From: Heterotrichella gracilis
Lineage: Eukaryota; Sar; Xanthophyceae; Tribonematales; Xanthonemataceae
DNA: 64,000 bases
NCBI GenBank assembly: GCA_032358255.1
Contig: JAULBX010027938.1
Coordinates: forward strand, 146,782 to 210,781
Direction: 5' to 3'
Position numbers and translations under genes: made by a program. Each line of letters starts with the position of its first letter. Position 1 is the stretch's first letter. The notes under the pieces were generated by a model that made no database searches, had not been told where the DNA came from, and saw only the letters and a program-made list of their open reading frames with translations. Below are positions 1 through 64,000 of the stretch, piece after piece.

Positions 1-2
1 GC

Positions 3-1624
3 CACAAGAAGTACCCCCCGGCGGGCAACAAGGCCACCACGCGCAGCCAGGTGGGGGTAGGGGGTGGGTGGGTGGAAGTGTGGAGCAGTCTTGAGAGGGG
101 CGGGTGGGGCTAAAGACGTGACGCTGGTTAGGGTTTGGGTGGTAGTGTTGCAAGGCTGTATCTTTCATTCATCATGTAGTAGATGGTGCATGTGGGATTT
201 ACTGTGAGATTTTGTTCATGAATCTGATGTGCGTGGTCAAATAATACAGGTGTATGTGTTTCTGATGACGGCTGGGAATGCCTTTCTAATTTGTTTGTTT
301 GTATTTCTGACTCGAGTATTGCCATGCTTCAGGACATCTGGCTGGAGCAGACTGATGCGCAGGCTGTGACTGAGGGGGAGGAGGTCACGCTCATGGACTG
401 GGGGAACTGCTTCGTACGGGTACGCACACTTAAGGGGGGGAAATTCCTAAAAATAAAGTTCACAATGTTTGAAGGGGAGGCGGTTATGCTCATGGACAGC
501 AGGAACTGCTTCATATGGATACGCATAAATAAGGGAGGAAACTACATAAAATAAAAAATAGTTGGTCTTCGTGTCTAAAGATACTTGCAGGCGTGAAGTG
601 GAGTGAATTCATGACGTCGCGCTGTGCTAGTTGCAAAACAGAGCTGGAAGGGGAAAGCCTTGCTAGTCATTGCTCCTACTAAGCTAGTCACCAGCACTTT
701 TGACTGCCGCTCACACCCACGACCCACCCGCAAAAAATCACGCGTGATGAGCAGGGCGTGGTGACTGCCCTGGAGGGCGAGCTGCACCTGGAGGGTCTCT
801 CGCCTAATCCCAAAGCCCTAAACCCAGCCACTCCCTTCCACATGCACCATCACGCTCTTGTCCCGCCCACAGAAACATGCATCTCCTAAACCCACATACC
901 TGAACACCCCCGCCTCTCCCGCAGAAAGTCACGTGCGACCCTAATCCTGCATACCTTACCCCCCTCCCGCCTGTCTCGCAGAATATCAGCCGCGACGAGC
1001 ACGGCGTGGTGACAGCCCTGGAGGGCAAGCTGCACCTGGAGGGTTCCGTGAAGACCACAAAGCTCAAGCTGACGTGGCTGTCCTCCGCTGCCGAGCTGGT
1101 TGACCTGGTGCTGGTTGACCTGGGCTACCTCATCACCAAGCCCAAGCTGGAGGAGGGGGACGAGTTTGAGGACTTTGTCAACCCGCAGTCGGTGGGTGGT
1201 GGCGGGTGACGGGGTTAGGTGATGGTGGGATGGTGAAGGGTGACGTGATATTGTATATCCCATATTTTCAGAATAATAGAAAATGCACTGTTTCGGTGCA
1301 GCGTTTTGAGGCCTATACCATGGGCGACGCCAACATGCGCACCGTGCTGAAGGCTGCACCATTGGAATGTATATGAAGTATTTACACTAATGGCATTTTT
1401 GAAAATTTACCAGTTTTAAGACTATGTTTTTTCTGTTGCAGCGCTTTGAGACCCTGGCGGTGGGCGACGCCAACATGCGCACCCTTCAGAAGGGCGACAT
1501 CATACAGCTGGAGAGGAAGGGCTACTACATAGTGGATCAGCAGCAGGTCAGGCCATCCAAGCCACTGGTGCTGCTCAACATACCCGATGGACGCACCAAG
1601 ACCTCAGCGACCCCCGCCAAGTGA
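3..1624 (+). CDS. Glutamyl-tRNA synthetase, cytosolic (C-terminal part, 5' end outside window)
   Basis: Charges tRNA-Glu with glutamate for cytosolic translation. Four exons are visible: 3-50, 333-419, 982-1191 and 1442-1624, all phase 0, giving 175 residues to a TGA stop. The translation follows the C-terminal anticodon-binding beta-barrels of eukaryotic/archaeal-type class I Glu/Gln synthetases in order. Landmarks are HKKYPPAGNK, EGEEVTLMDWGN, HLEGSVKTTKLKLTWL, the acidic EEGDEFEDFVNP linker, GDANMRTLQKGDIIQLERKG and VRPSKPLVLLNIPDGR. The catalytic Rossmann domain (HIGH, KMSK) lies upstream of the window. Three of the exons have a decayed partial copy nearby in an intron (see findings). The distinction from GlnRS rests on recalled similarity to plant GluRS C-termini. 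Confidence 0.9.
432..545 (+). repeat. Decayed copy of GluRS exon 2 end
   Basis: About 45-120 bases after the exon ending at 419, the sequence again reads GE-AVMLMDSRNCFI-, matching GEEVTLMDWGNCFV of the exon. The match includes the following TACGCA and AAGGGGGGAAA-type intron bases, so the copied block spans the donor site. The donor has changed and the copy is not needed in the gene model. Confidence 0.7.
735..796 (+). repeat. Decayed copy of GluRS exon 3 start
   Basis: This copy of the acceptor side of the exon at 982-1042 encodes RDEQGVVTALEGELHLEG against RDEHGVVTALEGKLHLEG in the real exon. Homology stops after the GAGGG of LEG and the reading frame then ends. It lies about 247 bases upstream of the exon it copies. 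Confidence 0.75.
1298..1358 (+). repeat. Decayed copy of GluRS exon 4 start
   Basis: The block reads RFEAYTMGDANMRTVLK, closely matching RFETLAVGDANMRTLQK at 1442. It begins with a GCAG-like acceptor, as the real exon does. It sits about 140 bases upstream of the functional exon. Confidence 0.75.
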
Positions 1625-13900: not shown

Positions 13901-16900
13901 CCAGGGAATAAACAGCTCACCAGCCCTGCCAGCTTTCACTGGGCATGTAGCAAGGTGACAACTTGAAGTTGAGTGAGGATTTGCGATATCACACAGTTAT
14001 AATAAATTTACAAGCAGTACTACTTCACTGCAGTGCTGGTGAATTTGTTTGCAATCGGCAAAATGCTGACATTGGCATTATAGTACTGGGGACAGTGTAC
14101 CAATCGGGATGACAATCAACTTCATAACAGTGTCACCACTTTGTCAGCAAATTTGGAACTCACATATGGCATGTCTGATGCAACTGTGTGCCCAGCCAAG
14201 CGCATACATCTCGCCACCATCAGCATGGGCAATGGTTGGATCTGCCAACGCCTGCTTGATCCCCTCCTGCGGTAATGGAGATGAGTAGCAATTCATTGAT
14301 CAAGTTGACGATCCATTAATGTAGCAGCATGTTCAGGGTTGGGCAAGCACCCACCGTGTACACTCGTAGCCAGGGCTTCAGTTCCTCAAGGAGTGGCTGC
14401 TGTGCAGCCTCTGATAGTCTCATTTGCCTGATGATCTGCATGTGTCAAGGCATGAGCAATGTGCATTCCTCCCTGCAAAAACATTTTTTAGCTTGTAAAA
14501 TTGTACAATTTCAGGCATACAAGGTCTAGGCTGCATGACTTGCAACACAATAACGCCATTATATATGCAAACCTACTTGTAAGTGTCTGGGAGGTTGGGT
14601 GCGGCGGTTGCCATGAACGACTCTGTCGCGCTCTGGTACGCCCCGTACATCAGGGCAGCCCTGGTGTCGCAATCTGAGTCATTTGGGAAGGGGATGCTGC
14701 GGTCACCTTCTTGAAGGCCGTTGGCCTCACTTGCAGCCCTGCAGCACATGCGATTGACCTTGGTTTAACAATTGGTTCAGGGGATGCAACATCCGCTGAC
14801 TGAGGTGGATGGATTGGCATCCTTTAAAATTGGTGCTACTTACCTCTTCTGCAGCAGTACCACGTCCTCCATGGCTTTCTTGCTCATTGATGCCATTATT
14901 ACCGGGACGTGGAGATGCCCAGTTACTGGACCAGGCTCAGCTCTTACTACTGCTGTCACTTTGGTTCTGTCTGTGGTCTGAGCAGAATTCCATTCATCAA
15001 TAGCTTGCCTGATGCGCGTGACAGTGGCAGGTACCAATGTACCATTCTTGGGGAAATGCGCCCTCGTCCAGGTTATGTGCAGATTGTGCCATTTGGTATC
15101 AGAGTCTGGTATACTTCTGCTTCCTCCAAGTACGCTGCAAATTTGGGAAGTCAGGTTTGCAAATGCATGACAGCAAGAAGCAGTTGAGAGCGTACACATG
15201 ATCAATCACCTTTTGCAAGAAGATAGCTATCTGGAGACAGGTAGAATCCCATATCATTGCTGGGAATGCCTAGTCTCCGTTTTCCTGCTTCTCCCCTTGC
15301 AAGAAATGTTCTAGAAGCTCTGGTGGGCAATCTGTAGGAACACAACAGCCTACTGTGAGTCACCCTAGCAAGGGTTTGAATGCCACCTGCTGGTATGCAA
15401 GCCAAGGAACTGATGAGCTATATCATATCTCAAATTGTTGCATAATGATTATTGTCAATAACGTGACCAATGTGTCCATACAAATGGTAATGCAATCACA
15501 GAGAGCGCGTTTCAGGGTGAGCCTTACCCAGGTGTGCATCGGAGAAGGTGTCAGAGGCAACACTGACACCATGCCTCCCTTTCTTGCGCGATGCAACTCT
15601 GGCACATACTGGCCTGGCTGAAGCCGCCTGCATGAGGTTTCAGCTGTGTTGCAATCATTTACTGCTGCAGCAGTCTATGCACTGCAATAGAGTAGGCACT
15701 GACACTGAGAACGTGCTTATAGTGCACCACATGTTTCAGTGAATCACATGCATATACAGGCAGCTGCCAAACCACATCCACCAGCCCCAAACGCTGGTCA
15801 CTTTAATTTACCTGGTGATCGACATCATCATCGTCCTCTGTGTCCTCGTTGTAGGTGAAAGCAAGCTCCTCCAGCACGCTCTTGTAGACAGGGGTTGGTG
15901 CGGCTGCATGTGCCTGCATGAAGTTGGAGCCATGTTGCCAACATTGTCTGCGGCTGGGCTTGTGCACTGTTAAAATAGTGGGCGGGGAAACCGACATTGA
16001 AAATGTGCTTGCAATGCACCACATATGTCTGTTAATCACGTGCATGTGCAGGCAGTTGCCAAACGACACCCACCATGCCCCAATTGCTGGTCACTTGAAT
16101 TTACCTGGTAATCAACATCATTATCGTCTTCTGTGTTTTCGTTGTAATTGCCAGCAAGCTTTTGCCGCACGCTCCTGTTGGCAGGGGTTGGCAATGCTGC
16201 ATGCACCTGCATGAGGTTGCAGCTTGTCGCGATATAGGTTACACGCTGCACAGGCTCTACATGGGCATATGCAAAGGCTTCCGCGAATAATTTGAACAAT
16301 GGGAGGTCGTAAGTAGTTACCAAGTCAGTAATACTATGGCATATCGGTGGGGAAATCTAGGTAAACACACAAACTGCAGTTTGAATGTAGCCGTTTATTG
16401 CTTGCATACCTGAGCAGCCCTGTCCTGCTCTGCATCCGCACCGCGCCTGGTGGCCATGACAGGTTGGTTGTCGATGACCTTCAGCACACCTCTAGTGGCT
16501 GGTTGTACAGCTGTGGCATTTTCTTTCTCGTAGACAGGCGTGTCCTCTGGCCCTACGGTAGTTGGAGCACAACAGTCAGTCAGGCGTACGAACCAAATGC
16601 ACGCTCCATACAGACACCATCAAATCCGTCCAAAACGTAATGCATGACAAGATTTGGACAGGGCACCCATTTGGAATTGACAGGCCTCTGGGGGCAAGGG
16701 CATTAACAGGCAGCCAGAGAGACTCAGGACGATGCAAAACAGGACGTACCGGATCGATCATCCTGGTTCATACTGGCAGTCCTGGTGGACAGATGGCAAC
16801 CGTTGTCGTCTGTCATAGTCCTCAGCCTAGTTTCTGGATGTCAGCAGTTGTGAAGAGTAGGTTAGCAGACCCACCATGAAACAGGATTGACAAATGAGCC

Positions 16901-40710: not shown

Positions 40711-40920
40711 AGGTCCAAATGGGCATTCCCCGCAATATTTTTTGGCAGCAATCCTGCGAAGTTGGTGTGAACAGCCGAGCGCCTACATTTTGACCTTGAG
40801 ACTGATGCGCCTGGGTGTGATCCGTGGGCAGGAGCTGGCAGGGGGGGAGTTGGACATGGATGCAGAGGTGCAGGCGGCCCTGGAGGCGGCTGGGCAGAAA
40901 TCACAGTGGCTTGAAGCTCC
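40598..40920 (+). repeat. Duplicated 3' coding block of the secreted-protein gene
   Basis: 40598-40711 and about 40801-40914 share LMRLGVxxGQExAGGELDMD AEVQAALEAA. The second copy lies after the stop codon, is preceded by TTGAG rather than a good acceptor, and has diverged. It could serve as an alternative last exon. Confidence 0.8.
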
Positions 40921-42182
40921 ACTGGCAGATGGATATTATAGGAGCACCAGTATTGCATTTTTCTGTGAAACCAGTGTTGCATTTTTCTGTTTGTTTTTGT
41001 CTGTATTGCATGCCCATGTTGGCAGGTTGCTATAGTGCATTTTGTGAGAAATCCCGGGCAACTTTGCACTGCCGGATGAATTCCTTTCACACTAAGCGCG
41101 TTTACATCTGTAATTTGTGATGAAAGCAATTGGCAATATGTCCTTTGCAACGGCAGCAGGGTAGCAGACATGCACCAGGTGCATACACTACATATATTTG
41201 TTATTTGATTGTGCACAGGTTCTAATCTTGTGAAGGTGTCACTGCTGTTGGACTTTTGTGTGCAGAATTGCCTCAGTTGCAGAGCGTGCTGTCAACGTTG
41301 CCAACAAATCGTTAGCCCGCACTGGCTTTACACAAGCACTGTCGTATGAACATTATTTACAGTGCTTGCTGATGGACGTGGACATGGACAAACACGCTGG
41401 GCGGCAGGGGCCCTTCAAAGACCTTTATCCATGGACAGCAGGTGGGCTGACCTAATCCAGCAGGTTCTCAAATACGTGGTCAAATTTTGGCTCAGATTGG
41501 ACCAGAAAAGAGCTGCGTGGCGCTGCATGTGCAAGACCGACTGCTAAATCTGGCTGTACTGCTGGAATGGATGTAACCAACTAACTAATTGTATAAGCAC
41601 TGAACAAAAGACTGTTTAGGGTGCAACAAAATGTCCTTACCCGGTGTCAAGTCCGTCGTGCTAAAGGTGCAACCATTCATACCACTTAAAGAGGAGTGAT
41701 ATGAATGGTTGCACCGCACCCCTTCGCCTGGCGCTTTCTGCCAGCTGGCAACCATGCAATACGCAGACTTCTATTGCAGGCTGCACCCTGTTGACGAAGC
41801 CTTGGAGAGTACTTGCGCTTCCTTCTGTCACCCCCATCTTCAAGACCTCTGCCCCAGCCACCATGCCTCCCACTGCTTGCTGGAGCTCCAGTCTCGCAGC
41901 GCTGCTGTTCACCCTGTAGAGATTGCAGACGCTATACTCTGTGCCGTCTACGAATCGCTGTGACTCCCAAGAACGCGACTCCAGTCTTCTTCAACACCTA
42001 AGGGAGAGATAGAGCACCTGCAGAAGAATGGTTACTTTCATAAGACCAACGCCGTTCTCCAAACAGCTTGTGGAACAGCCTATGCACAAACACCAACTCC
42101 AGAACGTGGAAAAGCTTACCAATTTAGTGTACTTCCGGCCACAGAAACCGAAGGAGTCTCACGCATGAGTAGCTGCAGACCG
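40711..42182. other. Convergent spacer
   Basis: It contains the duplicated block above, an open minus-strand frame at 41661-41912 that lacks a recognisable pattern, and the inverted repeat at 41666-41715. No gene can be supported. Confidence 0.45.
41666..41715. repeat. Inverted repeat, 16-bp arms
   Basis: GGTGCAACCATTCATA pairs with TATGAATGGTTGCACC across an 18-base loop. Just left of it (41649-41675) is AAGTCCGTCGTGCTAAA, which also occurs at about 42874-42890. This points to a small dispersed element. Confidence 0.8.
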
Positions 42183-46400: not shown

Positions 46401-46813
46401 ATTCACGGCAAATTCCCGTCATTTTTGGAATTTCGACTTTGGGCCCATCCTTGTGCAGGCCCCCTTCATCAACCACTCATGCGACCCCAAGCTGATGGTC
46501 CAGCCGGTGCATGTGGACAAAATCTATAACCCTAAACCCTAAACAAAACCCTACATCTTGACCACAACCCATTGCTCCCGCAGGCAACGTGGCCCGCTTC
46601 ATCAACCACTCCTGTGACCCCAACCTGTTGGTCCAGCCTGTGCTGCTTCCTGGGGACTCCTCGCTGCGCTACCGGGTGGCCTTCGTGGCATCCAGGCACA
46701 TCCCAATGGGCCAGGAGCTGTGCTTCACCTACAATTACAAGCTCACAGACAGGGTGGACCAGCAGATCCAGTGCAGATGTGGGGCCAAGAGGTGTGGGGG
46801 CAGGCTGAGGTGA
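43451..46813 (+). CDS. SET-domain histone-lysine methyltransferase, SUVH-like
   Basis: Confident in-frame exons are 44648-44722, 45008-45161, 45472-45657, 46127-46310 and 46584-46813. A likely first exon starts at 43451 (MADAEFCSQATGQQ), but its linkage through about 43800-43875 does not phase cleanly. The order fits H3K9-type enzymes. A pre-SET start (VPVPVYNEVDDAIPLPFKYT) is followed by Cys-rich CAADCNEHPSCPRQRVVSKG. Next come LEVFRTPGKGWGVR and the SET core with the AdoMet/catalytic GNVARFINHSCDPNL and ELCFTYNY. The post-SET is CRCGAKRCGGRL. It should act in the nucleus on histone tails. No SRA domain is visible in the window and the N-terminal part is short. The presumed substrate (H3K9) is inferred from the pre-SET type. 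Confidence 0.82.
44755..44826 (+). repeat. Copy of SET-gene pre-SET exon
   Basis: This repeats the exon at 44648-44722 in altered form (AVPIPVLHEVDGGTLLPFKYTR), including the AGGTGC donor, about 100 bases downstream. Confidence 0.85.
45924..46183 (+). repeat. Three-copy array of a SET-gene exon start, ~102-bp period
   Basis: The block encoding LDDTYLFNLNHYLLVA begins at 45924, 46025 and 46127, each after a CTGCAG/TTGCAG acceptor and a CCTAAACCCT run. The first two copies run into a stop right after VA/MA. The third is the functional exon. Confidence 0.92.
46350..46520 (+). repeat. Copies of flanking SET exons within one intron
   Basis: 46350-46392 repeats the end of the upstream exon (NTHLVIDARE) and 46458-46520 repeats the start of the next exon (FINHSCDPKLMVQPV). 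One intron therefore holds echoes of both its neighbours. Confidence 0.85.
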
Positions 46814-48338
46814 TGGGGAGGGTCAAGGGGAGCGTTTTTCTGTAGTTGGTTGCCTCGGATTTTAGCCATTGGACCCATTTTCGGCGCATTTCTGCGGGCC
46901 GTAACCGATAGGCAGGACCAGCAGATCCAGTGCAGGTGTGGGGCCAAGGGGTGTGGGCGCGGGGGCGCGGGGGAGGGGCGTCTTTCCCCTCATTTTCCAC
47001 CTCGCATTTTAGGCGTTAAAGCCATATTTCTGCCTCTCATTGGTACATGGCAGCCGCTGTAGTCCCCTTTTTACCCCCTTTAGCTTGTTTAGGCATGATA
47101 TCTTTTCACTCGTTAGAACTTAGCACAACTACCCAGGCCGGTGGTGTGTGCAGCCGCTTGGAAACCAACAGCTGACGTCCGCGCCATGGCGAGTGGGCTG
47201 GTGGAAAGTGGGACCAGGTGACAGGGTTTGGTATACTACATATGATTATGAAATGCAACCACGCTGATCTGGCTTTGTTGCCGGTATGCATGTAATAGAT
47301 AAAGCAACCATGGTATGGCCCGTCAACTTCACACCAAGCGAGTCTTAGGACTCAGGAGCAAGACTAAGGAACCTGGTGGCACTTGCTGTGTAGATGCTGC
47401 TGAGGTACCTGTGTAAACTTCATCTGGTAGCAAATGAGCAAGGTGTTCAAAATAGGCATACACGGATCATCTTGGCATGCCCCTGCATTGGAGCTGCAAG
47501 CTGCCAGCACCCGAAAGAGTGTTGCTGATAGAGTGCTACAGCTACAACAGCGCAATTCAACTTTGCAAGACTGCCCCAACAATGGACTGAAGACGCAATA
47601 GCACCTAGTAGCATAGTTGGGAACATCCCTGCAAGTTGTGACGCTTTGTGATGCGAGCATAAAAAGTCAAAGGCTGTCTGCCAGTGAGGCATGCCCTGGC
47701 ATTTCAAACAGGCCTATAATAAACTGGTATTACTGACAGAAATGCACACAGCTATCGTGCATATGATAGTCTCCCCTCCAAAAGCTGCAACATATACCTG
47801 ACCTGACCGCACTAACTCTTCACTGGAGGAAGGAACAGCTTCGTGCCCGGTGAACCTCAGTTCCACTGTTTGTAGAACCATGGCTGCATGTAGCAGCTTT
47901 TACAAGTGTGCAGAATCACTCCACACACGTGTAAAAGTTGCCACACACAGCAATGGTACGTCAACCAACTGGTACTGGGGTTTACCAGGCACTACGTAAT
48001 TCCTCCCTCCCCCCCACCAATGCTCACCGCCCCACCCACCCCCCGACCCCGTCCATCACCCCCGGGCCCTCCTCCAAAGTACTTCCCCCCTGCAGCAGGG
48101 GCATGCCAGGTGGCGCCAGCTGACCGCGCCAGCTCAACTGTCAGTCAACACCAGCTCAACTGACCCCACTAGCTGACCACATATGCCCCAGGTGACAACA
48201 TGGCTCCAGCTAATTACGCTACACATCCACACCCGCTCCCGCTGACCGCACCAACTGACCCCATCACCCGCTCCGCGAAACCACGCCAGCATATTGCACC
48301 CGGCTGCAGGGTGTATTCCCCCCTCCCCCCTGGTCCCT
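46814..48338. other. Convergent spacer
   Basis: 46895-46960 is a further copy of the post-SET coding end (DQQIQCRCGAKGCG) beyond the stop codon. The rest, including the pyrimidine-rich stretch at 48000-48090, shows no gene. Confidence 0.5.
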
Positions 48339-49697: not shown

Positions 49698-52666
49698 TCA
49701 TGCTGCCTCAGCACCCGCACTGGCCGCCGCACGCGCACGCATGCCCAGCAGCGCCACAGCCACCCGCGATTGCCCCGGCCTGCCTAGCACCCCGGAAATC
49801 ATTTCGCTTGCATCCAGCAGCTCGTCCAAGTCCACCCCGTGGCGCACGCCCAGGCCGTTGAGCATGTACACCAAGTCCTCGGTAGCCAGGTTGCCTTAAT
49901 AGCACAGCACGTGTGAGCCGTGGAAAGTGAGAAAAAGTGCTTATATCATACGTCAATTTAGCAGATGTGCGAGACGCTGGTGGGCAAGTTGCCTGCCTTC
50001 AAAGCACAGCACAATGTCCACCATGGGTTCCTGCAGACTGGCAAATCTGATGGATTTTGCTGCTCAAAATCTAGGCCATTCAGCATATGTATGAGTCAGC
50101 CCCTTCTCATATATCCACACTTATTAGACACCCCTCTTCCCCCGCACCCCTCACCCGTTACCCCCTGTGCAAGGGGGCACCTCACAGCATGTACATGAGA
50201 AACATCTTAAGGTTCTTATCTCCCCACGCACCCCTTCCCTTGGCCCCCCCCACCCACCTGTCGCGCCCTGTGCAAAGGGGCACCCCCCCAGCCCCGCCAC
50301 GCTGGAGTCAAACACCCTCACCCCCAGCTGCATGGAGGCCAGTACATTTGCCAGCGCCTGACCATATGTGTCGTGCAGGTGCGCAGCCAGGTGGGACACG
50401 GGGATCTGGCGCAGGCATGCCTGCAGGGGGTGACAAGGGGGAAGATTTACTTGAAGATACCACGTAAATCAATTACTTATGATTGTCAGAGGCCTGATAC
50501 CTACCAGACATACTTTGGTGAGCTGTGTGAATTCATATCTGCATAGAGCGGATGGTTTCCAGGGGATGAAACCTAAAGGCACCCCACCTGGAACATTGCC
50601 GTGACTGAGGCCGGTGTGCCCACCCCCGTGGTGTCGCTCATTGACACCTCGTAGCACCCCATGGCGTGGAGCGCAACACCCACGTCGGCCGCAGCCTCGG
50701 GGCTCACCTCGCCCTGCGCCAAGGAAAAGGAAAGAGTGTCATGAGTAAGAAATATACACCGAATGAAATGACTTTAGCTTAATATATGAAACACATAATT
50801 AAAATGCAATTAATGCAATCATCGACTATAATAATCCAAAATTGTTTGATACAAAAATTACGAATAACAATAAAGCAACATCGTATCCAGCCTGTACTTG
50901 AACCACCATGAGGGGAGTGGAGTTACAAAGGCCTACCAATAATCTCTCGTCCACCATTGTGGGCATATACACGCGGTGATCACAACCCCACCTGGTATGG
51001 GCAGCCCACCACTGTGGACACATAACCCCGCACAGCCATCCCCTCCTGCTTGGCTGCACCAACCACATCCTCAATCTTGTGAAGCGACTCCCCTATGGTG
51101 CAGTTGAGGTTGCGCTTGTTGAACGCCTCCGATGCGGCCACAAAGACAGAAATGTCCTTCACTCCGGCCTTGACGGCGCCCTCAAAACCCTACACAAGGG
51201 TAAACAGGGCCACTCAATACCCTACACAAGGGTAAGCAGCCATGCCCAACGCCATCAAAATATTATACATGGTAAAAGCGCTGCATAACCATACCCAAGG
51301 GCATCATCCCTCCAAACCCTCCACAAGTGTAAGTACCCTACGACTACACGCAAGGAGATGCACGTGTGCGCCGTGTGTGTGTGCATTGGCGTGTGTGCAG
51401 GTTTGTGCCCTCCACGCTAAGGGAATTTACGCAAGGAGAAGCCTGATATGCGCCATGTGTGTGCATTGGCGTGTGTGGGTGGAGATTTGGCCCTCCTCGC
51501 GCAAACCTTCCCATTGCTGGCAACTCACTTCCCCCACCTTCCTGTTTGGCACCAGCACATTCCACCCCCATTCCCAGCCCCACGCTCACACCTGGTGACC
51601 CCACCCCACCCGCTCCCCCCACCTTCATGTTTGGCACCAGTACGGGGAAGCGCACCCCCTGCCTGGGCGCCACCCTGCGCACCACCTCAGCCGCATCCGC
51701 CAGCTGCAACACGAGTTTGAGCAAGGCAAATCTGGTGGCCTCTACACCCAAAATCCCACCTCCACCGCCACCTTACCATTCACACTGTACCAGCACACTC
51801 CACCCTCACCACCCCCACCTTCATGTTTGGCACCAGTACGGGGAAGCGCACCCCCTGCCTGGGCGCCACCCTGCGCACCACCTCAGCCGCATCCGCCAGC
51901 TGCGGCACCCACTTTGGCGACACAAAGCTGGTGGTCTCCACGAAGGGCAGGCCAGCGGCTGCCAGCCTGTTGATGAGGTCGACCTTCACATCGGTGGGGA
52001 CCTGTGGGAGGGTGTGGCGTAGGGTTTTTAAGCAAGGGTTTAGGACATTGGCTCTTTATATCTCTCAATCCACACAGGTTAACCTTCAACCGGTCCTCCT
52101 GTTCTTTTCCCTTGGGTACGTGAGGGCAGGGGGAAACCAACAGGTCAGCGGTGGGCCAGCGCTAACCCTAGAACACCCTAGGAAACTAGACTGCCCCCGT
52201 GTGTGTGTTGGCGTAAAATGAAGCAGCAGTGCCCTGCCAAGCCCCAATGAGCAGCTCTATTTCTTTGTGATGCTATTTGTGAGGGCTGAGGGTGAGCAAA
52301 CAACTTTACCTGGTTGGGCTCGTTTTGCAGGCCGTCCCGGGGACCCACTTCTACAATAGTGACAGACTCGGGCAGGTGCTGCGGGGCGTTGACAATAGAG
52401 TTAAGTGGAGGGAACTGCAAACGATGTGCCCTGTCAAACCTTGCATAAGGCAGATTACTTAAAGTATCCATACTGGAATTATGGCGCGGCATGCCATTTG
52501 CATGCAGCCCAGGACAACGCCCATCACACGTCAGACAACCATCTAGCGCTAGAAGACTTGCAAAAGTACTGTACTGCATACCAGGTTGGCCTGTTGGGCA
52601 AACCCTCTTCGTTGACGGGCGCCGCTGTTTCCTACTCGCCACTGGTGCAGTGCCGATACCAAGCAC
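49698..52666 (-). CDS. Hydroxymethylglutaryl-CoA lyase
   Basis: Six exons (52666-52310, 52001-51819, 51189-50992, 50713-50588, 50420-50258, 49894-49698) join in frame to 407 residues. The enzyme splits HMG-CoA to acetyl-CoA and acetoacetate, the last step of leucine breakdown, usually in mitochondria. Conserved blocks appear in order: [15 protein letters not shown] (catalytic Arg-Asp), [87 protein letters not shown] (metal-binding His-x-His), [20 protein letters not shown] (signature with active-site Cys) and [12 protein letters not shown]. The long N-terminus is basic and Ser/Arg-rich, as expected for a mitochondrial leader. The start could instead be the Met at about 52468. Confidence 0.92.
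51616..51903 (-). repeat. Apparently identical 91-bp copy of an HMG-CoA lyase exon end
   Basis: 51616-51706 and 51813-51903 appear identical base for base at an offset of 197. The block encodes [20 protein letters not shown], then VLVPNMK and the GTGGGGG donor. The copy lies in the downstream intron and continues into unrelated sequence, so it is a recent duplication. Confidence 0.92.
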
Positions 52667-52977
52667 CTCTTAGACATACCCAACCAGCTGAGCATGCACA
52701 GTTCGAACCAGATTAGATGCCACTAGGCCGTCGGTATGTTGTGGTACTAGTGTAAACGAACGGCGTGCAAGGTAGTCACTGTCGTAAAAGTTGGGATGAC
52801 CTGTTCACAGTGACAACTTGGGTGGAGCAGCTATTGCAGGTGTATCGAGTTACAGCACCTGATAGCGGTAGCGAACTTATCAGCAACGAGGGAGGGTGTT
52901 GCAGAGTTGCTTTGTGCGGTATGCAGCGTGTATAACAGCGCCAGCAGGATAATGCATGCAGACATGCACGCACCCTG

Positions 52978-53542: not shown

Positions 53543-53804
53543 GAGAAAACAGTGACGTTTTTCACACAAAAAATACTTGACGCATGCACGCAGACGACAA
53601 GGCATGCGCAATGATTGATCATATTTTATAGAAATGTATGCATCATAATAATTTGCAATTGGGATGCCAAACCTTCATTCCTGTATCATGCAACTTGATA
53701 CTTCATATCATCTGGCCACCTACAATTGAACCATGCTCATGCAATATAAGTTTTTACACCAGGCCGGCAATGTAAATCTTTACGCCGGCGCTCAGCGTCT
53801 TGCC

Positions 53805-55315
53805 TTAGGGTTTAGGGCTCATTATTTTAGGGTTGAGAGTTGCAACTTGGCTGCTTACCTGGCGCTCGGTGTCTTCGAGGCTGCCCGAATTGTCGATCAG
53901 GGTGCTTGCCAGGGCCTTTTTGCTGCCAGCTGGCATTTGAGAGCTGATCTTGGCCTCAGCCATGGCCCTGGTGCACTGGTCGCGATCCATCACCCGCTTA
54001 ACCTGCGCATGAACAATGGTTCAAAAATGGTTTTTAGGGATGCATTAAGATCTGCACATTTCCACACGTGCATGTGGGTTCACTAATTTACAAAACAATG
54101 ACAAAGGGTGATCAACCCACACGATAAGAAGCAACAATCAAAACAAAGTATTCATTGCTGAGAAGCACATGGCATCACTCTGTCCAATAACAATAATCAG
54201 CAACACAAAACGCCAGCACCAACCGCATACCCATCACCCCACCTGAGTGTCATGCTCGCACCACACCAGCCATGTGCGCATCATGAGGCGGTGGCTGCTG
54301 CTTTCAAACAGCAGCGGCATGTCAACTACCTGCAAGGGGCACACAATATTATCATGTTAAGTTTATTCCCCCAATAAGTGTAATTTGATTAGAAGTGTAA
54401 CTTGATCACAGCCTGCAAAGGGTAAAATAGGTAAGGACATTTTTTTTGTGTGTGTAGATGTTGTGTAAAACTATTGGTCTAAAAATTTCTTACTCCAGGT
54501 TCCACATTTAGGGTTTAGGGTGCGTGCATCTGCCTATGTCTATAGATAAAAATATTGTTATAAAAATTTCTTACTCCAGGTTCCACCTATAGGGCTTGGG
54601 GCACTCACCAAGAGCGGTGTGAGTGTGATCCACGCCATGAGTATCTGCCTTGCAAGCTCCAGAGCCACCGCAGGGTGTGTTGCCTTGTTCAGCTTGCGGC
54701 GCGCAGCGGCGTCTGTGAAGGCAAGCGACCCCAGGGCGTCCCGGTCTATCTCACCGTCTGCCTGCAGGATGTTGTTCCCAAAGGCTGACACCACGCGGCG
54801 ATACCCCCACTTGCCCTGCACAGGCAGCTTGATCAGCCTGGGGACTGCTCTGTTGTAGGGTGGAATCTTTTCCCAGCTGGCCAGCGCTCAGCCCCACAGG
54901 GGAGTAGAGGGGAGAAAAGGGCTGACGTTATGCCAAGTCAAATGGCATTTTATAGTGTGAGTATTATTGAAAGGCGAAAGGCGGCCGTCATGCCAAGGCT
55001 GTCATGGGCTTACCTTCTTCACAACCTCCTCTGCTATCTCGTTGCCTAAACCCTAAACGACGAGGGTACATCGCCTAAACCCTAATCCCTGTACTTGTTA
55101 TGATGCCATGTCAACGCACGTTATGTTATCGTGTGCACAAACTTACACTGAAAGACGGGAGGGGCAGTATCAGCCTGACTGCCTGGGCTCACCTTCTTCA
55201 CCACCTCCTTTGCTATCTCGTCGCAGTCGATCACCGCCACCCCCCTGCGACGCAGCATGGTCGTCACCGCTGACTTGCCACAGGCGATGCCTCCCGATAA
55301 TCCGACCAACTTCAT
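53805..55315 (-). CDS. Dephospho-CoA kinase
   Basis: Four exons (55315-55193, 54866-54609, 54329-54243, 54002-53805) join in phase 0 to 221 residues, the normal CoaE size. The enzyme phosphorylates the ribose 3'-OH of dephospho-CoA, the last step of coenzyme A synthesis. Visible motifs are the P-loop GLSGGIACGKSAVTTMLRRRG, VIDCDEIAKEVV, ADGEIDRDALGSLAFTDAAA, NKATHPAV, the core VVDMPLLFES with WLVWCEHDTQVKRVMDRDQ, and IDNSGSLEDTERQ at the end. The stop used here (TAA at 53807-53805) lies in a CCCTAAACCCTAA run reached by reading through a GTAAGC donor-like sequence after ERQ. A further exon is possible but was not found. Confidence 0.88.
55005..55050 (-). repeat. Copy of CoaE exon 1 end
   Basis: TACCTTCTTCACAACCTCCT and following bases repeat the end of exon 1 (coding CDEIAKEVVKK) and its donor, with a few changes, about 150 bases into the intron. 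An AACCCTAAAC run follows directly. Confidence 0.8.
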
Positions 55316-56332: not shown

Positions 56333-59300
56333 ATGTGGAGCTACCTCACGGGAGGTGGAGGAGGTGGAACCGCTAGGAGCCCAGAGTACAGAGCGGTGGA
56401 AAGGTAACGCCAGCTTTGGTAACACCACCCAGCATGCCAACCCCAACGCACTGTGCATGCCACTGTGCAATGCCACTGTGCAATGTTCAACCCGGTAGCA
56501 TTAGCTTTCATAGGGCACGGCTTCGAATTATACCAGGGTTGTTAGAAAGAGAGTCTCTGGTTATACCGCATTTGATCCCTTCTCGGCGATGCTCCACAGG
56601 TACTTTCCAGAGGGCGAGCTGAAACAGCTTGAGCAGCAATACAACCAGCACCGCGACCCCAAGCACCAGGGGCTTGACCAGGCCACACTCTTTGTAAGCT
56701 ACCACCACCCAGCTCAAACCCCAAAACCCTAAACTTTAAAACAGTGCAGCCAGCGACCATATGGTGTCAGCACCAAGCGTCCACCATGCAACACTGCTTG
56801 TATGCTACTGGCACCCAGCAAAAACCCTTAACATCCAGCCCTCAATCTTAGGGTCCGCTCCAGCACCAAAACCTTGGGATCCTGCTTTTTCCCCAACTTT
56901 GGAATGCAAGCTCAAAACACGTAAGGGTTCGGCCTGTACCAGCTCTCAGCCCTAGTGGGGTTTCCCGCAGGCATTGTTGGGGTTGCACAAGCTCACCCCG
57001 TGGCTGGCCACCAGGCTGTTTCACGTAGTGACACGTGGCAAGCCCCTGGCTAGCTTTGAGGATGTGGTGGTTGCCAAGGCAAGGAGCGGGAAGAAGGGTG
57101 ACGAGGAGGAGGCCAGGTTCTGCTTCCAGCTGGTGGATGCAAGTGGCACTGGGAAGCTTTCCAAGTGAGTTCTGCAGATGGAAAAGTGTCGGAAGTGCTG
57201 ACGTTTTATCGTCTGGTTGAAAGGGTGAAAGGTTGAAATAGGAGGAGATTGCCGTGCATGTGCAGGCCACATCATTGCAGAATAGCGAATCAATCTGCGC
57301 CAATAGCATGCATTTGCACCACTTTGCGCAGGCTGGATGTGGAGCAGGCAGTAGAGTCATGTCTCCACCTGGCACTGGGTATGGCCTCCAATGACAAAGT
57401 CGACACGCTGTACCCCCAAGCGATAGCCGAGGGGGCGATGGCGCACGCGCAGGAAGGCGCCCTATGGTTTCAAGGGTTTTTGAAGTGGTCCAAGGGTGTG
57501 CCTGCGCTGGTGCGCACCCTGCGGTCGCTGCTGAGGCAAGGGGAGGAATCAAGCGTGCACGACGGGTGCACGGGTAAGTCATTTTGCATATGATACTCTC
57601 TTCATGGCCAAGATCCAAGAATTCCCAAATCTTGGGGATGTTTAGGAATGCCTGCTGTCTAATTGAACTGTCTCGGAGTCTTGTTCTGTGTCCTAATGTG
57701 GAAGAAAAAATGCTGCCTCATCAACGCTTCCCTCAGCAATGCGAAGGGCGGAAGGCGTTGCTCATGATGGGTACATGGGAAAATCACCGTAGAAAAGTTT
57801 CTTAAATTCCAATCACAGAGGAAAGCTCCCCAGCGCAAAATTGCAGATCAAGTTACCCTCCTCACACAGGCAGCGCCCTGCTCCCCTGCCTCCAGCCTGG
57901 CCTCAAGGCCAGCCCCAGGAGCCCACTGCTGCTCACGCGGGAATGGGCGTGGCTGCTGGGTTCCGCAGTGCCTGCGGGCCAAGGGGGGGAATGGCAGCTG
58001 CTGTACAACAGCGACCTGCATGGCAAGAGCTTCAACACATTCATGGGGCGGGCAGGTGAGTACCTGCATCAAAGCCCTAAGCCCTACTACCGTACTCAGC
58101 AACCTGCGCGGTGAGAGGGTCAACAGTTTCATGGGGCGGGCGGGTGGGTGCCGATGCATCTCCGCTGCAAACGCAAAACCCTAAACCCTAGTTCCTATAC
58201 AGTTCATGGGCATGCGTGTGAGCGCCAGTACTTTGGCTCCCCTTGTAATGCATGCATGCCCACATGGCACTTGGAGGCCATGTTTTCCGCTTTGTGCAAC
58301 TATTTGCACCACTTCTCTGGTGGCAGCGCCTGACTGTGGTGCACAGATGTTTGCGCCACCTCTCCAGTGATGCCAGAGGTTTTAGGGTTTAAGGTTTTGG
58401 ACTGTGGACTCTGTGTGTGGCGACTCTCTCACTGGGCCCTGGCTTGTGCTGCCAGGTGGCAAGGGTGCGAGCGTGGTGGTGGTGCGTGATAAGCAGGGCC
58501 ACGTGTTTGGGGGCTACGCTGCGTGCCCGTGGGAGAAGAATGGACAATTCTACGGTACGCTTGACTACGTTGGTAAAAACAATTAAGTACATATGTATTT
58601 AAATACATATATGTGTGTATAAGGGGTATAGAGTGTATACATATATAATTTGGCTATAAGCTATATTGCCAAATTAAACAGGCCTGTTCTTCCAGTACAA
58701 ATGGCACATTTTAGCAGGCGCATGCTTTCTGGAAAGCTGAAGATTAATCTTGATTGTTTGTCTTAATAAGCCGATGCAACCCACGGCATGCTTTTGCAGG
58801 CGACTTTGTGGATTTCGTGTTTTCCCTGCTCCCCACCGCGCACATCTACCGTCCCAGCGGCGCCAACCAGAACTTCCAGTGGTGCGGCCACACCTTCACT
58901 CAGCTGCCTAACGGCATCGGCTTTGGGGGCCAGGTCAGCATGCTTGCAACCAATCCCTGAATGCTTGCGATTAATCCCTGAATGCTTGCAACTAATCCCT
59001 GAATGCTTGCAACCAATCCCTGAATGCTTGCAACTAATCCCTGAATGCTTGCAACCAATCCCTGAATGCAGAGTGTACCACACAGCATATCATGCGGCAT
59101 CATGCATCTTGGGTTGTGTCGTGTTTTGGGGACAGGTCAGCATGCTTATAACCAATCCCTGAATGCAGAGTATACCACACAGTGTATCGTGCGCCCTCAT
59201 GCAACCTGTGTGGAGGGTGTCGTGGAGCCCTGCTAGAAACCCTAGCAGATAGCTGGAACCCCTCAATAACCCTCCGCCGCGAGCCCTGACACTCCACCTA

Positions 59301-60420
59301 TGCCAGTCCGACACTTTCAGTAGTCCTCCGCTCAAAACCTGACACCCTCCACCTCCCCCAGGTTGGCTACTTTGGACTGCTAGTGGACGATGACCCTGCA
59401 CATGAAGGCCTGAAACCCTTTTTGTGAAACCCTTCCCCAGGTTCGTTACTTTAGGTTGCTAGTGGATGGCACCTTTGACGGGGGCATGAGCCGGCCAGTG
59501 CCACCAGGACTTGATAACCCTTGGATTCAGGACCTGAAAACCCTTAATACCCTTCCCGCAGGTTGGCTACTTTGGACTACTGGTGGATGGCACCTTATAC
59601 CGTGGCCTGAGCCTGCCTGCAGCCACCAGGACTTGAAAACCCTTCGAACTGGGACCTGAAAACCCTCAATACCCTTCCCGTAGGTTGGCTACTTTGGGTT
59701 ACTGGTGGATGGCACCTTCGATGGGGGCATGAGCCGGCCTGCCGCCACCTATGCCAGCCCAACACTCTCGGGCCAGCCTGTGTTTGAGGTGGATGTGGTA
59801 GAGGCCTGGCTCACATTGGCAGTGCCAAAGGAAGAGTATGGTGGTGGGGCACAAGGGGAGGGGGGCAACACGGTGCTGGACAGGTGGGTGGGAAGGGGGG
59901 GATGGCGGTGGATTGCTGTGTGCAAAAACTGGTTTTTGGAGGCCTGGTATGCCTCGTGGCACTGCAGTTAGTGCAGTGGGATTGAGGTGGATGATGTGGT
60001 TGAGGCATGGCTCACATTGGCAGTGCCCAAGGATGAGTATGGTGGTGGGCACAAGGGGAAGGGGCCAACACAGTGCTGGACAGGTGATGTGGATGGCAGT
60101 GCTTACATTGTATTTTGAATTGGTTGTTTGACTAACGAAACCTGGGGCAGCTGAGAAAAATCTGGGGCCCTTTTATGTGGTGTATATGTCACCTGCATCC
60201 CCTGGATTAAATCCATGCATCTGGTGTCCATCAGGGCTGGTGCTGAACCCTAGCCTGTGGTTTCCTGCAGGTTCAACAAGGACCACCACCTGATGCTGAA
60301 CCCTAGCTTGTGGTTTCCTGCAGGTTCAAGGAGGACCACCACCTGATGGAGCTTGCTGGGGTGGCCACAGACCACAGCGCAGGATACAGGGACAAGGGCC
60401 CCGCGGAACCTATATATTAA
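56333..60420 (+). CDS. TLDc-domain protein (MEAK7/TLDC1-like)
   Basis: Nine exons (56333-56403, 56600-56693, 56971-57164, 57332-57573, 57870-58055, 58456-58554, 58800-58933, 59684-59883, 60324-60420) sum to whole codons and give 438 residues. The first half is helical with an EF-hand-like region (FCFQLVDASGTGKLSKLDVE). The second half is a TLDc domain: WQLLYNSDLHGKSFNTFMGR, GASVVVVRDKQGHVFGGYAA, WEKNGQFYGDFVDFVFSLLP, YRPSGANQNFQWCG, GIGFGGQVGYFGLLVDGTFD and VDVVEAWLTL. The short Gly-rich N-terminus lacks the N-myristoylation Gly2. TLDc proteins act in oxidative-stress resistance and V-ATPase or mTOR-lysosome regulation in animals. The algal role is unknown. Confidence 0.85.
58085..58150 (+). 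repeat. Copy of TLDc exon 5 end
   Basis: It repeats the block coding LLYNSDLHGKSFNTFMGRAG in decayed form, about 80 bases downstream, again including the GGTGRGT donor region. Confidence 0.75.
58940..59065 (+). repeat. 21-bp minisatellite, 6 copies, in a TLDc intron
   Basis: Six head-to-tail units of about ATGCTTGCAACYAATCCCTGA start seven bases after the exon 7 donor. A single unit recurs at about 59139-59159 next to a second copy of the exon-border word GGACAGGTCAGC. This shows the array grew within an exon-edge duplication. Confidence 0.92.
59362..59883 (+). repeat. Three upstream copies of TLDc exon 8 start
   Basis: The block GTTGGCTACTTTGGACTGCT (coding VGYFGLLVDGT) occurs at 59362, 59441 and 59562 before the functional exon at 59684. 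Each copy follows a C-rich AG acceptor and later ones carry longer exon stretches (DGTFDGGMSRP). Confidence 0.92.
59983..60300 (+). repeat. Downstream copy of TLDc exon 8 end and upstream copy of exon 9 start
   Basis: 59983-60086 repeats EVDVVEAWLTLAVPKEEYGG and onward to the GACAGGTG donor. 60260-60300 repeats TTCCTGCAGGTTCAAxxAGGACCACCACCTGATG of exon 9. One intron holds echoes of both neighbouring exons. Confidence 0.88.
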
Positions 60421-62248: not shown

Positions 62249-62285
62249 TCACAACGCCAGCATGTCTGATCGGATCTTGACCTGG
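62155..62285 (-). repeat. Copy of the last-exon end plus GATC-rich filler
   Basis: AACGCCAGCATGTCTGATCG and following bases up to TTGACCTG occur at 62160-62190 and 62251-62282. The second is the coding end (KIRSDMLAL-stop) of the proline-rich protein gene. The copies are joined by short GATCTTGATC-type repeats. Confidence 0.85.
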
Positions 62286-64000
62286 TCTTTCAACTCCTGG
62301 GCGAGGGTGTGCGCCATGGAGAGGGCGTCCTTTGCGGTCCGCACCAGCTCGTCCGCATGCACATGCTGTGCTGCGTCCTTGCTGGAGATGGCCAGGGTCA
62401 GTGGCTGGTGTTGGCTCTGGCTCAGTGCGGTGGCTGATTCCGCGTCGTGCAGCAAGTCACCTGAAAGGAGAGAAGAGGCATGGGTCAGATACTGAGCTGT
62501 TGAATACGGGGTAGAGCACAGAGTAAACATTGCATGAAAATAAACTGCATGTGAAACAACTAACATGCACTACAGCAGCAACCTGGCAGGGCAGCACACC
62601 AGTATAGGGTTTCAAGTTCCATAATCTATGGTTTTAGGGTCAGGGCATGTGGCAGCGCGTCTCACCTGTGTGCTCGGCTTCATGGCCAAAGTCCAGGGTG
62701 CCCTGCAGCACCGGTACCCTCGAGTCGGGCAGCTCCACCCCCAGCTTCTCCACATTGCTGTACAGGGAGTTCATCCCCGTGAGCAAGCTGGACTGCACCA
62801 ACGCCTGGCGGGCATCGGCGGAGATGGGCGTGGGTGGCACCGGCACAAAGTCGGGGTCGGGGACCGCCCCGGTCCCCGCCCCGCTCTGGGATAGCGCCAG
62901 GGTCTCCTGCACTCCTCGGGTGGCCACGGAGCGCAAGGGGAGCGTGACATTGGCGTCCTCGGAGGCGGCCAGGTAGGAGGGGAGGTCAGCGAAGTCTGGG
63001 GGGAGGGCGATCCCCGCATCCTGTCCCCGTCCCAGGGCTGCGTCCAGGGATGAGGTGGAGAAAGCGGGGAAGTCGAGCTCCATGGCGCCGCGCTTCTTCT
63101 TTGTGGGGGTGCTGTCGGGCCCCGGGGCGGGCGCGGGGACGGGGGCGGGGGCCGGGGCGTCCACAGGTGGCGGGGGGGTGCGCTTGGGTGGTGGGTGGAG
63201 GGGCGGTGGGTGGTGTGGCGGTGGGGACTCGGGTGGGGGCGACTGGGGTGGTGGGGACTCTGGTGGTGGGGAGTCTGGCGGTGGGTGGTGGGGTGGTGGG
63301 TGGTGGGGCGGTGGGGAGTCTGGGGGTGGGGAGTCGGGGGGGGGTGGCGAGTGCTTGGGTGGTGGGTGGTGTGGTGGTGGTGACTCTGGTGGAGGGGAGT
63401 CTGGTGGTGGTGACTCTGGTGGTGGAGACTGGCGCTTGGGTGGTGGGGAGTCTGGAGGTGGTGACTCTGGTGGTGGTGACTGGCGCTTGGGGGGCGGCGA
63501 GTCTGGTGGTGGGGACTCTGGTGGTGGAGACTGGCGCTTGGGTGGGGGTGAGTCTGGTGGTGGCGACTCTGGTGGTGGCGACTGGCGCTTGGGTGGGGGC
63601 GAGTCTGGAGGTGGGGACTCTGGTGGTGGCGACTGGCGCTTGGGGGGCGGCGAGTCTGGTGGTGGGGACTCTGGTGGTGGCGACTGACGCTTGGGGGGCG
63701 GCGAGTCTGGGGGTGGGGACTCTGGTGGTGGCGACTGGCGCTTGGGTGGTGGGGAGTCTGGAGGTGGGGACTCTGGTGGTGGCGACTGGCGCTTGGGTGG
63801 TGGGGAGTCTGGTGGGGGAGACTCTGGTGGTGGGGACTGGCGCTTGGGAGGGGGGGCATCTGGTGGCGGAGACTGGCGCTTGGGGGGTGGCGAGTCTGGT
63901 GGTGGGGACTCGGGGGGTGGCGCCTGGCGCTTGGGAGGGGGGGCCTCTGGGGGCGCTGCCTCGCGCGGGGGTGGGGGGTGGGCGGGGGGCGGGGACGCGG
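62249..64000 (-). CDS. Proline-rich repeat protein (C-terminal part, 5' end outside window)
   Basis: Two exons are visible: 64000-62666 (running off the window) and 62460-62249. The first ~270 residues are a low-complexity tract built from SPPP units, mostly as [18 protein letters not shown] with a period near 17 residues, degenerating downstream to HHPPP and [12 protein letters not shown] short [12 protein letters not shown] linker and KKKRG basic patch follow. Then comes a normal-composition domain: [49 protein letters not shown] and a helical tail, [24 protein letters not shown] tracts are typical of algal hydroxyproline-rich wall proteins. The interspersed KRQ triplets and the helical non-secreted-looking tail fit an intracellular scaffold better. 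No family is recognised for the C-terminal domain. Confidence 0.65.
63180..64000. repeat. GGTGGT-rich degenerate coding minisatellite
   Basis: About 820 bases of G-rich (+)/C-rich (-) DNA encode the SPPP/KRQ repeat on the minus strand. A ~51-57-base higher-order unit (GACTGGCGCTTGGGTGGTGG and onward) recurs roughly ten times from 63420 rightwards. Confidence 0.9.

What the first reader, a model, noticed from the sequence alone, without database searches (positions are those of the whole stretch)
1..64000. Exon echoes: intronic copies of exon edges in most of the multi-exon genes
At least ten genes carry partial copies of the adjacent exon border inside introns: GluRS, MgtE, the unknown nested gene, OPR-RAP, PAN3, SET, HMG-CoA lyase, CoaE, TLDc and the proline-rich gene. 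Each copy starts or ends inside an exon, spans the splice site and part of the intron, and is usually 50-250 bases away. Copy number runs from one to three and identity from about 60% to apparently 100%. This is not a known repeat family, because each copy is local and exon-specific. It suggests a recurrent tandem-duplication process that seeds new splice sites, lengthens introns and could create alternative exons or new introns. No feature type normally records this.
Basis: partly seen in the sequence, partly recalled or inferred. Interest (0 to 1): 0.9.

Follow-up and report, generated by a model that had tools for sequence, protein, structure and literature searches.

The report
Exon-edge copies joined by telomere-like motifs
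In this eukaryotic (probably green-algal) stretch, many exon ends have been copied in short tandem steps into the neighbouring intron, often with a telomere-like motif at the new joint, which points to an unusual repair process that lengthens introns and leaves spare splice sites behind.

Summary
Below position 62,000 there are 52 direct and 0 inverted self-matches of >=35 bits at <=500 bp, and none in 20 shuffles. With curated gene models, 36 of 40 non-overlapping repeat pairs join exon to non-exonic DNA; circular shifts average 10.8, maximum 21. By hand assignment, 34 of 118 splice edges carry a copy.

The copies are DNA-level tandem duplications across donor, acceptor and sometimes stop-codon borders. 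Afterwards they drift without coding constraint. Splice dinucleotides persist in 34 of 37 copies.

Uniform duplication with decay and detection limits predicts 26-31% edge-spanning families; observed are 32 of 36, or 29 of 36 by the stricter rule. And introns are loaded with the plant-type telomere motif AAACCCTA (46 in 20,493 bp; 2 in 27,982 bp outside genes), which sits at the duplication joint of 18 of 32 edges against 7.3 expected.

Best reading: recurrent break repair or template switching at coding borders, often joined through telomere-like sequence. Splice-site use, taxon breadth and the enzyme are untested. I rate it a new variant of a known kind.

The parts
371..555 (+). GluRS exon 2 donor edge (371-457) and its tandem copy (470-555); donor GT is AT in the copy
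   Evidence: 78% over 87 bp, offset 99
729..1044 (+). GluRS exon 3 acceptor edge (977-1044) and upstream copy (729-796); acceptor AG is AA in the copy
   Evidence: 87% over 68 bp, offset 248
1297..1493 (+). GluRS exon 4 acceptor edge (1437-1493) and upstream copy (1297-1353)
   Evidence: 81% over 57 bp
15626..16223 (-). Whole-exon tandem duplication (unit 286 bp, exon plus flanks) in a minus-strand exon assigned to MgtE by position only
   Evidence: 77% over 313 bp; reading
23224..23530 (-). FAST/RAP gene exon 14 acceptor edge and two upstream copies
   Evidence: 96% and 80%
23760..23875 (-). FAST/RAP gene exon 13 donor edge and copy
   Evidence: 94% over 47 bp
24665..25024 (-). FAST/RAP gene exon 12 donor edge and two copies, telomere-like sequence at the joints
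   Evidence: 86-94%
25563..25888 (-). FAST/RAP gene exon 11 acceptor edge and three copies; exon-interior end falls on a coding AAACCCTA
27689..27881 (-). FAST/RAP gene exon 8 acceptor edge and copy
   Evidence: 82% over 79 bp
28121..28393 (-). FAST/RAP gene exon 7 donor edge and copy
   Evidence: 87% over 69 bp
29214..29428 (-). FAST/RAP gene exon 6 acceptor edge and copy; exon-interior end falls on a coding AAACCCTA
   Evidence: 82% over 100 bp
35398..35581 (+). PAN3 exon 6 acceptor edge and upstream copy
   Evidence: 87% over 70 bp
36161..36357 (+). PAN3 exon 7 donor edge and copy
   Evidence: 85% over 68 bp
37059..37504 (+). PAN3 exon 9 donor edge and two copies (offset 203 bp for the first)
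   Evidence: 83% over 243 bp
40597..40921 (+). C-terminal coding end with stop codon of the unknown gene and its copy in the 3' flank
   Evidence: 88% over 121 bp
43520..43657 (+). SET gene exon 1 donor edge and copy with telomere-like tract
   Evidence: 79% over 57 bp
44654..44970 (+). SET gene exon 4 donor edge and copies
   Evidence: 77% and 83%
45118..45276 (+). SET gene exon 5 donor edge and tandem copy (offset 77 bp); donor GT is AT in the copy
45616..45836 (+). SET gene exon 6 donor edge and copy
   Evidence: 79% over 76 bp
45892..46180 (+). SET gene exon 7 acceptor edge, two upstream copies in a 101-bp array with AAACCCT tracts
   Evidence: 89-92%
46458..46643 (+). SET gene exon 8 start and upstream copy
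   Evidence: 89% over 53 bp
46745..46963 (+). SET gene coding end and copy in the 3' flank
   Evidence: 87% over 60 bp
51524..51941 (-). HMG-CoA lyase exon 2 donor edge and two copies; a 92-bp identical run inside an older pair
   Evidence: 88% over 147 bp, run P=0.0005
55005..55224 (-). CoaE exon 1 donor edge and copy ending at a telomere-like tract
   Evidence: 90% over 41 bp
58009..58160 (+). TLDc gene exon 5 donor edge and copy
   Evidence: 78% over 64 bp
59352..59749 (+). TLDc gene exon 8 acceptor edge and three upstream copies
   Evidence: 82-91%
59784..60086 (+). TLDc gene exon 8 donor edge and copy
   Evidence: 90% over 106 bp
60237..60348 (+). TLDc gene exon 9 acceptor edge and 53-bp tandem copy
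   Evidence: TRF 93% matches

Best explanation
The echoes are small direct tandem duplications whose unit (about 53-290 bp) straddles a border between coding and non-coding DNA: donor, acceptor or stop codon. They recur at the same borders, up to three extra copies.

SHOWN: direct orientation, local, edge-biased, and exon plus intron flank are copied together in part of the cases. The surplus copy lies in the intron or 3' flank, drifts without coding constraint, and usually keeps a good splice site. Telomere-like AAACCCT/AGGGTTT sequence sits at the joint (the copy's exon-interior end) more than twice as often as at random places in the same introns.

INFERRED: breaks or stalled forks at coding borders of expressed genes are repaired by template switching. 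The 3' end is joined through telomere-like sequence, either added by telomerase or used as microhomology. Only duplications whose extra copy is spliced out or untranslated survive selection. Part of the edge bias may come from exon sequence being conserved and occasionally recopied onto the echo by gene conversion.
For: Excess and orientation: 52 direct versus 0 inverted, 0 in shuffles. Edge preference: 36 of 40 non-overlapping pairs exon/non-exon versus circular-shift mean 10.8, maximum 21 of 2000 shifts, P=0.0005; for all 63 pairs 49 versus mean 18.4, maximum 33 of 500 shifts. TRF independently finds seven arrays of period >=40 before 62,000, and I read all seven as crossing an exon edge in my models.

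Uniform duplication plus decay plus detection predicts an edge fraction of 0.26-0.31 overall and 0.48-0.56 within genes. Observed are 32 of 36 and 32 of 35 (P<=1e-12 and <=5e-6). With the simulation's own rule of >=15 exon bases they are 29 of 36 and 29 of 35 (P<=2e-9 and <=7e-4).

Non-coding drift of the copy: mismatches at codon positions 1/2/3 are 109/809, 70/810, 159/806; intron columns 194/1117, about twice position 2.

Telomere link: AAACCCTA 46 in 20,493 bp of introns, 3 in 13,716 bp of exons, 2 in 27,982 bp outside. Joint location 18 of 32 edges versus 7.3 at random (P=0.0002) or 7.5 at non-repeat intron positions (P=0.0005); the copies' other ends 9 of 40. Echo edges versus other edges within 70 nt: acceptors C-strand 8/14 versus 9/45, P=0.015; donors G-strand 5/20 versus 1/39, P=0.014. 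Two of the three exonic AAACCCTA sit at the exon-interior ends of copies, at 25,563 and 29,214.
Against: Joints without the motif: 14 of 32 edges. Echo edges are not significantly enriched for the C-strand at donors (4/20 versus 3/39, P=0.21) or the G-strand at acceptors (1/14 versus 3/45), and at the level of whole introns the orientation contrast is weak (P=0.09). C-strand motifs near acceptors may simply be splicing signals. In 22 of 41 copies the intron flank beyond 12 nt shows no similarity above background although exon parts are up to 98% alike over 50 columns; this does not fit a plain perfect tandem duplication with neutral decay and needs filler, later turnover or conversion. Mosaic runs are significant in the exon part of only 2 of 43 copies, and over the whole alignment in 5 of 43. 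Within genes the edge excess is much weaker under the stricter rule. No second species, no RNA, no population data.
Confidence: 0.5

Rival explanations
1. Survivor bias refreshed by gene conversion: tandem duplications happen everywhere, but only those touching exons stay recognisable, because the exon side is conserved and keeps recopying itself onto the echo while intron-only and intergenic pairs decay.
For: HMG-CoA lyase pair holds a 92-bp identical run inside a diverged pair, P=0.0005. Homology often stops near the splice border: 22 of 41 copies lack flank similarity. Copies seem to cluster in exons that look conserved (impression, not tested).
Against: Significant runs in the exon part of only 2 of 43 copies, 5 of 43 over whole alignments. 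One-sided versus two-sided decay alone is too weak. Does not explain the telomere motif at joints.
Confidence: 0.25
2. Uniform tandem duplication plus purifying selection in exons and ordinary detection bias, with no targeting at all.
For: Needs no new process; exon-internal duplications would be purged. Within genes the excess falls to P=2e-5 to 6e-4 under the stricter rule.
Against: Expected edge fraction 0.26-0.31 versus 32 (or 29) of 36 observed; only 1 of 43 families outside genes although 27,982 bp are outside.
Confidence: 0.08
3. The telomere-like tracts are splicing signals (branch point or pyrimidine tract at acceptors, G-rich enhancer at donors) and only coincide with the duplications.
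For: 28 of 73 C-strand motifs lie within 60 nt upstream of an acceptor and 13 of 37 G-strand motifs within 60 nt of a donor; motifs also occur in echo-free introns.
Against: Motif excess is at the copy's joint end (24 of 40) and not its outer end (9 of 40); echo-free introns have about a third of the density (2.68 versus 7.61 per kb).
Confidence: 0.25
4. The copies are functional: alternative exons or regulated decoy splice sites kept by selection.
For: 34 of 37 splice dinucleotides kept; echo sites score far above random intronic GT or AG.
Against: Codon positions drift as expected for a non-coding copy and 31 of 34 exon-part gaps break the frame (my count). By my estimate, retention of 34 of 37 is close to what about 8.7% neutral drift gives.
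Confidence: 0.05
5. Assembly artefact (misjoined haplotypes or read errors).
For: No reads are available to check.
Against: The 43 aligned copies differ by 6-27% with separate indels, stand in register with exon edges, and are direct and local.
Confidence: 0.03

Closest known systems
Junction-spanning tandem duplication in the potato RdRp gene (Ma, Lan and Niu 2016, PMC4974935; passages incl. part of the abstract seen)
   Same: A tandem duplication copies part of an intron, its 3' splice site and the following exon sequence.
   Different: There one event activated a cryptic donor and made a new intron; here dozens of events in 64 kb leave surplus copies inside existing introns, with telomere-like joints.
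Intron gain by duplication of an AGGT-containing exon segment (Rogers 1989; Hellsten 2011), as described in PMC4974935 (passages)
   Same: Local tandem duplication with splice sites.
   Different: That model needs both copies to span a splice junction of the new intron; here one copy lies in the intron or 3' flank.
Internal gene duplication (Gao and Lynch 2009; cited in passages of PMC4974935 and in the reference list of PMC3488318; paper itself not read)
   Same: Duplication of parts of genes is described as common.
   Different: Here units are edge-centred partial exons, non-coding after duplication. I do not know that paper's rates for such edges.
Interstitial telomeric sequences inserted by telomerase at double-strand breaks in mammals (Nergadze 2007, PMC2246262; passages)
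   Same: Telomeric repeats inside chromosomes at repair sites, in a minority with duplicated flanking sequence (6 of 130 rodent, 4 of 25 primate loci in its table).
   Different: That study classifies insertions by what happened to the flanks at the break; here short imperfect TTTAGGG-type motifs lie in introns at joints of exon-edge duplications.
Plant telo boxes AAACCCTA (Gaspin 2010, PMC3022908; passages)
   Same: Same octamer; the authors propose a telomerase and recombination origin.
   Different: In Arabidopsis the motif is enriched in 5' UTRs (680.3 per Mb) and introns hold 150.7 per Mb; here introns hold 46 in 20,493 bp, about 2,245 per Mb on both strands. Whether their count covers both strands I did not check.

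Membership tests
Local tandem duplication | Direct, adjacent or near-adjacent copies | tested here: met
   52 direct versus 0 inverted at <=500 bp; seven arrays of period >=40 before 62,000 found by TRF
Local tandem duplication | Unit length equals offset (no filler) | tested here: inconclusive
   Flank similarity above the 95% null in 19 of 41 copies, not in 22; one more copy too short to test
[quoted passage not shown]
   In pairs touching an edge, the other copy is in the intron or 3' flank
Exon duplication giving alternative exons | Copy keeps coding constraint and frame | tested here: not met
   Position rates 0.135/0.086/0.197 and 31 of 34 exon-part gaps not multiples of three
Telomerase-inserted interstitial telomeric sequence | Telomere-type repeats located at the repair joint | tested here: met
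   18 of 32 edges versus 7.3 random, P=0.0002; the organism's own telomere repeat is not known
Telomerase-inserted interstitial telomeric sequence | Empty site in a relative, insertion as exact repeats | not testable with these tools
   No relatives found
Transposon or introner family | Same sequence at many loci | tested here: not met
   Within the window, matches >=40 bits beyond 500 bp: 3 direct and 1 inverted; copies are exon-specific

The most novel reading that the evidence does not exclude
A lineage-wide repair pathway in which telomerase, or another enzyme adding telomere-type repeats, acts at breaks on coding/non-coding borders of expressed genes. It produces edge-centred duplications that steadily lengthen introns and stock them with spare, still competent splice sites.
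Probability: 0.15. Interest if true: 0.88.

Novelty: new variant of a known kind. Interest (0 to 1): 0.7.

Why it matters
Intron growth and the origin of new splice sites are usually argued from few cases. A genome in which roughly three in ten splice edges carry an alignable duplicate would allow rates, breakpoints, splice-site fate and conversion to be measured directly. The telomere-like joints would link intron evolution to a named repair chemistry. For annotation it warns that gene finders will call echoes as exons; my own did so at 925-981, 37,272-37,357 and 51,610-51,703.

Tried and rejected
Tried and rejected: AGGT-type intron gain (geometry); alternative-exon function; RNA-family content (0 Rfam hits at gathering score) and tRNA genes (0); a local inverted-repeat or dispersed-repeat origin within the window. 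My first dynamic-programming gene finder over-called splice sites and was discarded. The second chained genes together, so I used it only for exon limits and curated genes by hand. The MgtE assignment is represented by two exons only and is left out of the intron statistics. Eleven other gene models feed the 118 splice edges.

Literature: 10 searches; among the titles and abstract starts listed I saw no report of telomere-joined exon-edge copies. Four returned nothing, partly because the term lists were narrow, and searches listed only the top few of many matches. The library lacks most subscription papers. The Coccomyxa genome paper (PMC3446292), searched for six terms, mentioned no exon copies in the six passages shown. 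I recalled it as a possible near relative; the taxon is not established.

Dropped rows: pairs starting beyond 62,000 (proline-rich VNTR). rows SET5d and TLD9a overlapped themselves and were redone. In one search MgtE was left out and one copy was too short. In one search, stop-edge and MgtE families were dropped and 3 of 40 had no edge inside the alignment. In one search, stop-edge and MgtE families were dropped. Family and edge lists were assigned by hand and include weak members (for example HMG-CoA lyase exon 5 at 75%, low complexity).
Full report
WHAT WAS CHECKED. The window is 64,000 bases without N. No host genome is held, and no relatives were found with two PAN3 exons in viral contigs or one in genome contigs. 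All tests are therefore internal to the window.

REPEATS. Self-BLAST below 62,000 gave 52 direct and 0 inverted matches >=35 bits at offsets up to 500 bp, and 0 of either at 500-1000 bp. Twenty dinucleotide shuffles gave 0 at <=500 bp. Tandem Repeats Finder independently lists period >=40 arrays at 371, 24,673, 25,564, 45,121, 45,901, 59,429 and 60,237, and others after 62,000. I read all seven of those before 62,000 as crossing an exon edge in my models.

GENE MODELS. A codon-usage gene finder was curated by hand. Exon limits, splice dinucleotides and frames are printed, and nine limits were then corrected. Pfam supports the SET (2.8e-11), CoaE (5e-13), PAN3 pseudokinase (1.2e-27), TLDc (1.7e-05) and FAST-kinase-like (4e-11) exons; of the ten exons submitted, four had no hit and one only a sub-threshold match.

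WHERE THE REPEATS LIE. Of 43 hand-grouped families, 32 originals span an exon edge, 7 lie inside an exon with the copy in non-coding DNA, 3 are intron-only and 1 is outside genes. In an automatic version with 40 non-overlapping pairs, 36 join exon to non-exon, 3 are non-coding within genes and 1 is outside; 2000 circular shifts average 10.8 and reach at most 21. With all 63 pairs the split is 49 exon/non-exon, 1 exon/exon, 12 non-coding within genes and 1 outside, against a shift mean of 18.4 and maximum of 33 for exon/non-exon. By hand assignment 34 of 118 splice edges carry a copy, 20 donors and 14 acceptors. Two coding ends with stop codons are also copied (40,597 and 46,745), so the target seems to be the coding border and not splicing as such. 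At this threshold the zinc-finger and AP2-like models have no copy and the Mediator-like model has only a 20-bp match.

IS THE EDGE BIAS A DETECTION EFFECT? I simulated uniform tandem duplication with observed unit lengths, neutral decay, constrained exons and the BLAST threshold. It predicts edge fractions of 0.26-0.31 overall and 0.48-0.56 within genes; observed are 32 of 36 and 32 of 35. The simulation calls a unit edge-spanning only with >=15 exon bases. By that rule the observed counts are 29 of 36 (P<=2e-9) and 29 of 35 (P=2e-5 to 6e-4). Detection bias alone is therefore disfavoured within this model, strongly overall and less strongly within genes. Gene conversion from exon to echo could add to it. 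One pair, HMG-CoA lyase exon 2, has a 92-bp identical run in an otherwise diverged alignment (P=0.0005). In the exon part only 2 of 43 copies reach P<0.05, and over whole alignments 5 of 43.

FATE OF THE COPIES. Mismatch rates are 0.135, 0.086 and 0.197 at codon positions 1, 2 and 3, and 0.174 in intron columns. Position 2 thus shows about half the intron-intron rate, as expected if mainly the echo drifts there. Of 34 exon-part gaps, 31 break the frame (my count). Splice dinucleotides are kept in 34 of 37 copies. Mean site scores are 5.6 for echoes and 6.7 for real sites, against -0.1 and -1.95 for random intronic GT and AG. The sites are neither purged nor clearly conserved. Whether the spliceosome uses them is unknown.

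ANATOMY OF THE JOINTS. In 19 of 41 copies the intron flank beyond 12 nt is also similar (11 above the 99% null, 8 above the 95% null), as in a plain tandem duplication. In 22 it is not, so filler, turnover or conversion is needed there.

The commonest sense-strand 7-mers of introns are telomere-type: AAACCCT 52, AACCCTA 47. AAACCCTA occurs 46 times in 20,493 bp of introns, 3 times in 13,716 bp of exons and twice in 27,982 bp outside. It leads all 280 distinct 8-mers of the same composition in introns. The published Arabidopsis intron value is 150.7 per Mb (PMC3022908, passages); here it is about 2,245.

A telomere-type 6-mer lies within 20 nt of the joint end in 24 of 40 copies and 18 of 32 edges, against 7.3 expected at random in the same introns (P=0.0002, the floor of the test) or 7.5 at non-repeat positions (P=0.0005), and 9 of 40 at the outer ends. 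Two of three exonic AAACCCTA coincide with exon-interior ends of copies. Orientation evidence is weaker: echo acceptors are enriched for the C-strand and echo donors for the G-strand (P about 0.015 each), but the contrast over whole introns is not significant (P=0.09).

INTERPRETATION. The best-supported account is recurrent small tandem duplication at coding borders during break repair or template switching, often joined through telomere-like sequence, followed by drift of the surplus copy. Telomerase involvement is an inference by analogy with mammalian interstitial telomeric insertions, some of which duplicate flanking sequence (PMC2246262, passages), and with the telo-box origin model (PMC3022908, passages). 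The nearest published single event that I found is the potato RdRp junction duplication (PMC4974935, passages). I therefore call it a new variant of a known kind.

LIMITS. One 64-kb window, hand-curated models and family lists, no transcripts, no relatives, taxon inferred only.

Noticed in passing
8000-8054 and 17837-17890: A 55-bp stretch at the start of an apparent MgtE exon (minus strand) is repeated 9.8 kb away at 91%, with an AP2-like gene on the other strand between the copies; a long-range echo or a second terminal exon.
   Followed up: partly
62154-62193 and 62248-62287: Proline-rich gene: a 40-bp copy at 97.5% beside what is either its stop codon or a donor site.
   Followed up: partly
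63186-64000: Large coding repeat array (several periods, 15 to 87) in the proline-rich gene.
   Followed up: no
6326-6380, 55703-55761, 41666-41715, 24409-24540: Hairpin-like inverted repeats with arms of 27, 20, 21 and 54 nt (74-100% complementary), possibly small non-autonomous elements.
   Followed up: no
outside gene models, e.g. 42940-42975: TGCATGC and its reverse complement GCATGCA are the commonest 7-mers outside genes (58 each, both strands counted).
   Followed up: no
58940-59211: 21-bp minisatellite inside a TLDc intron next to a donor edge that is itself copied.
   Followed up: partly
8151-8183: Exact 17-bp tandem containing a donor-like CTAGGGTAAGT on the minus strand, near MgtE.
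   Followed up: no
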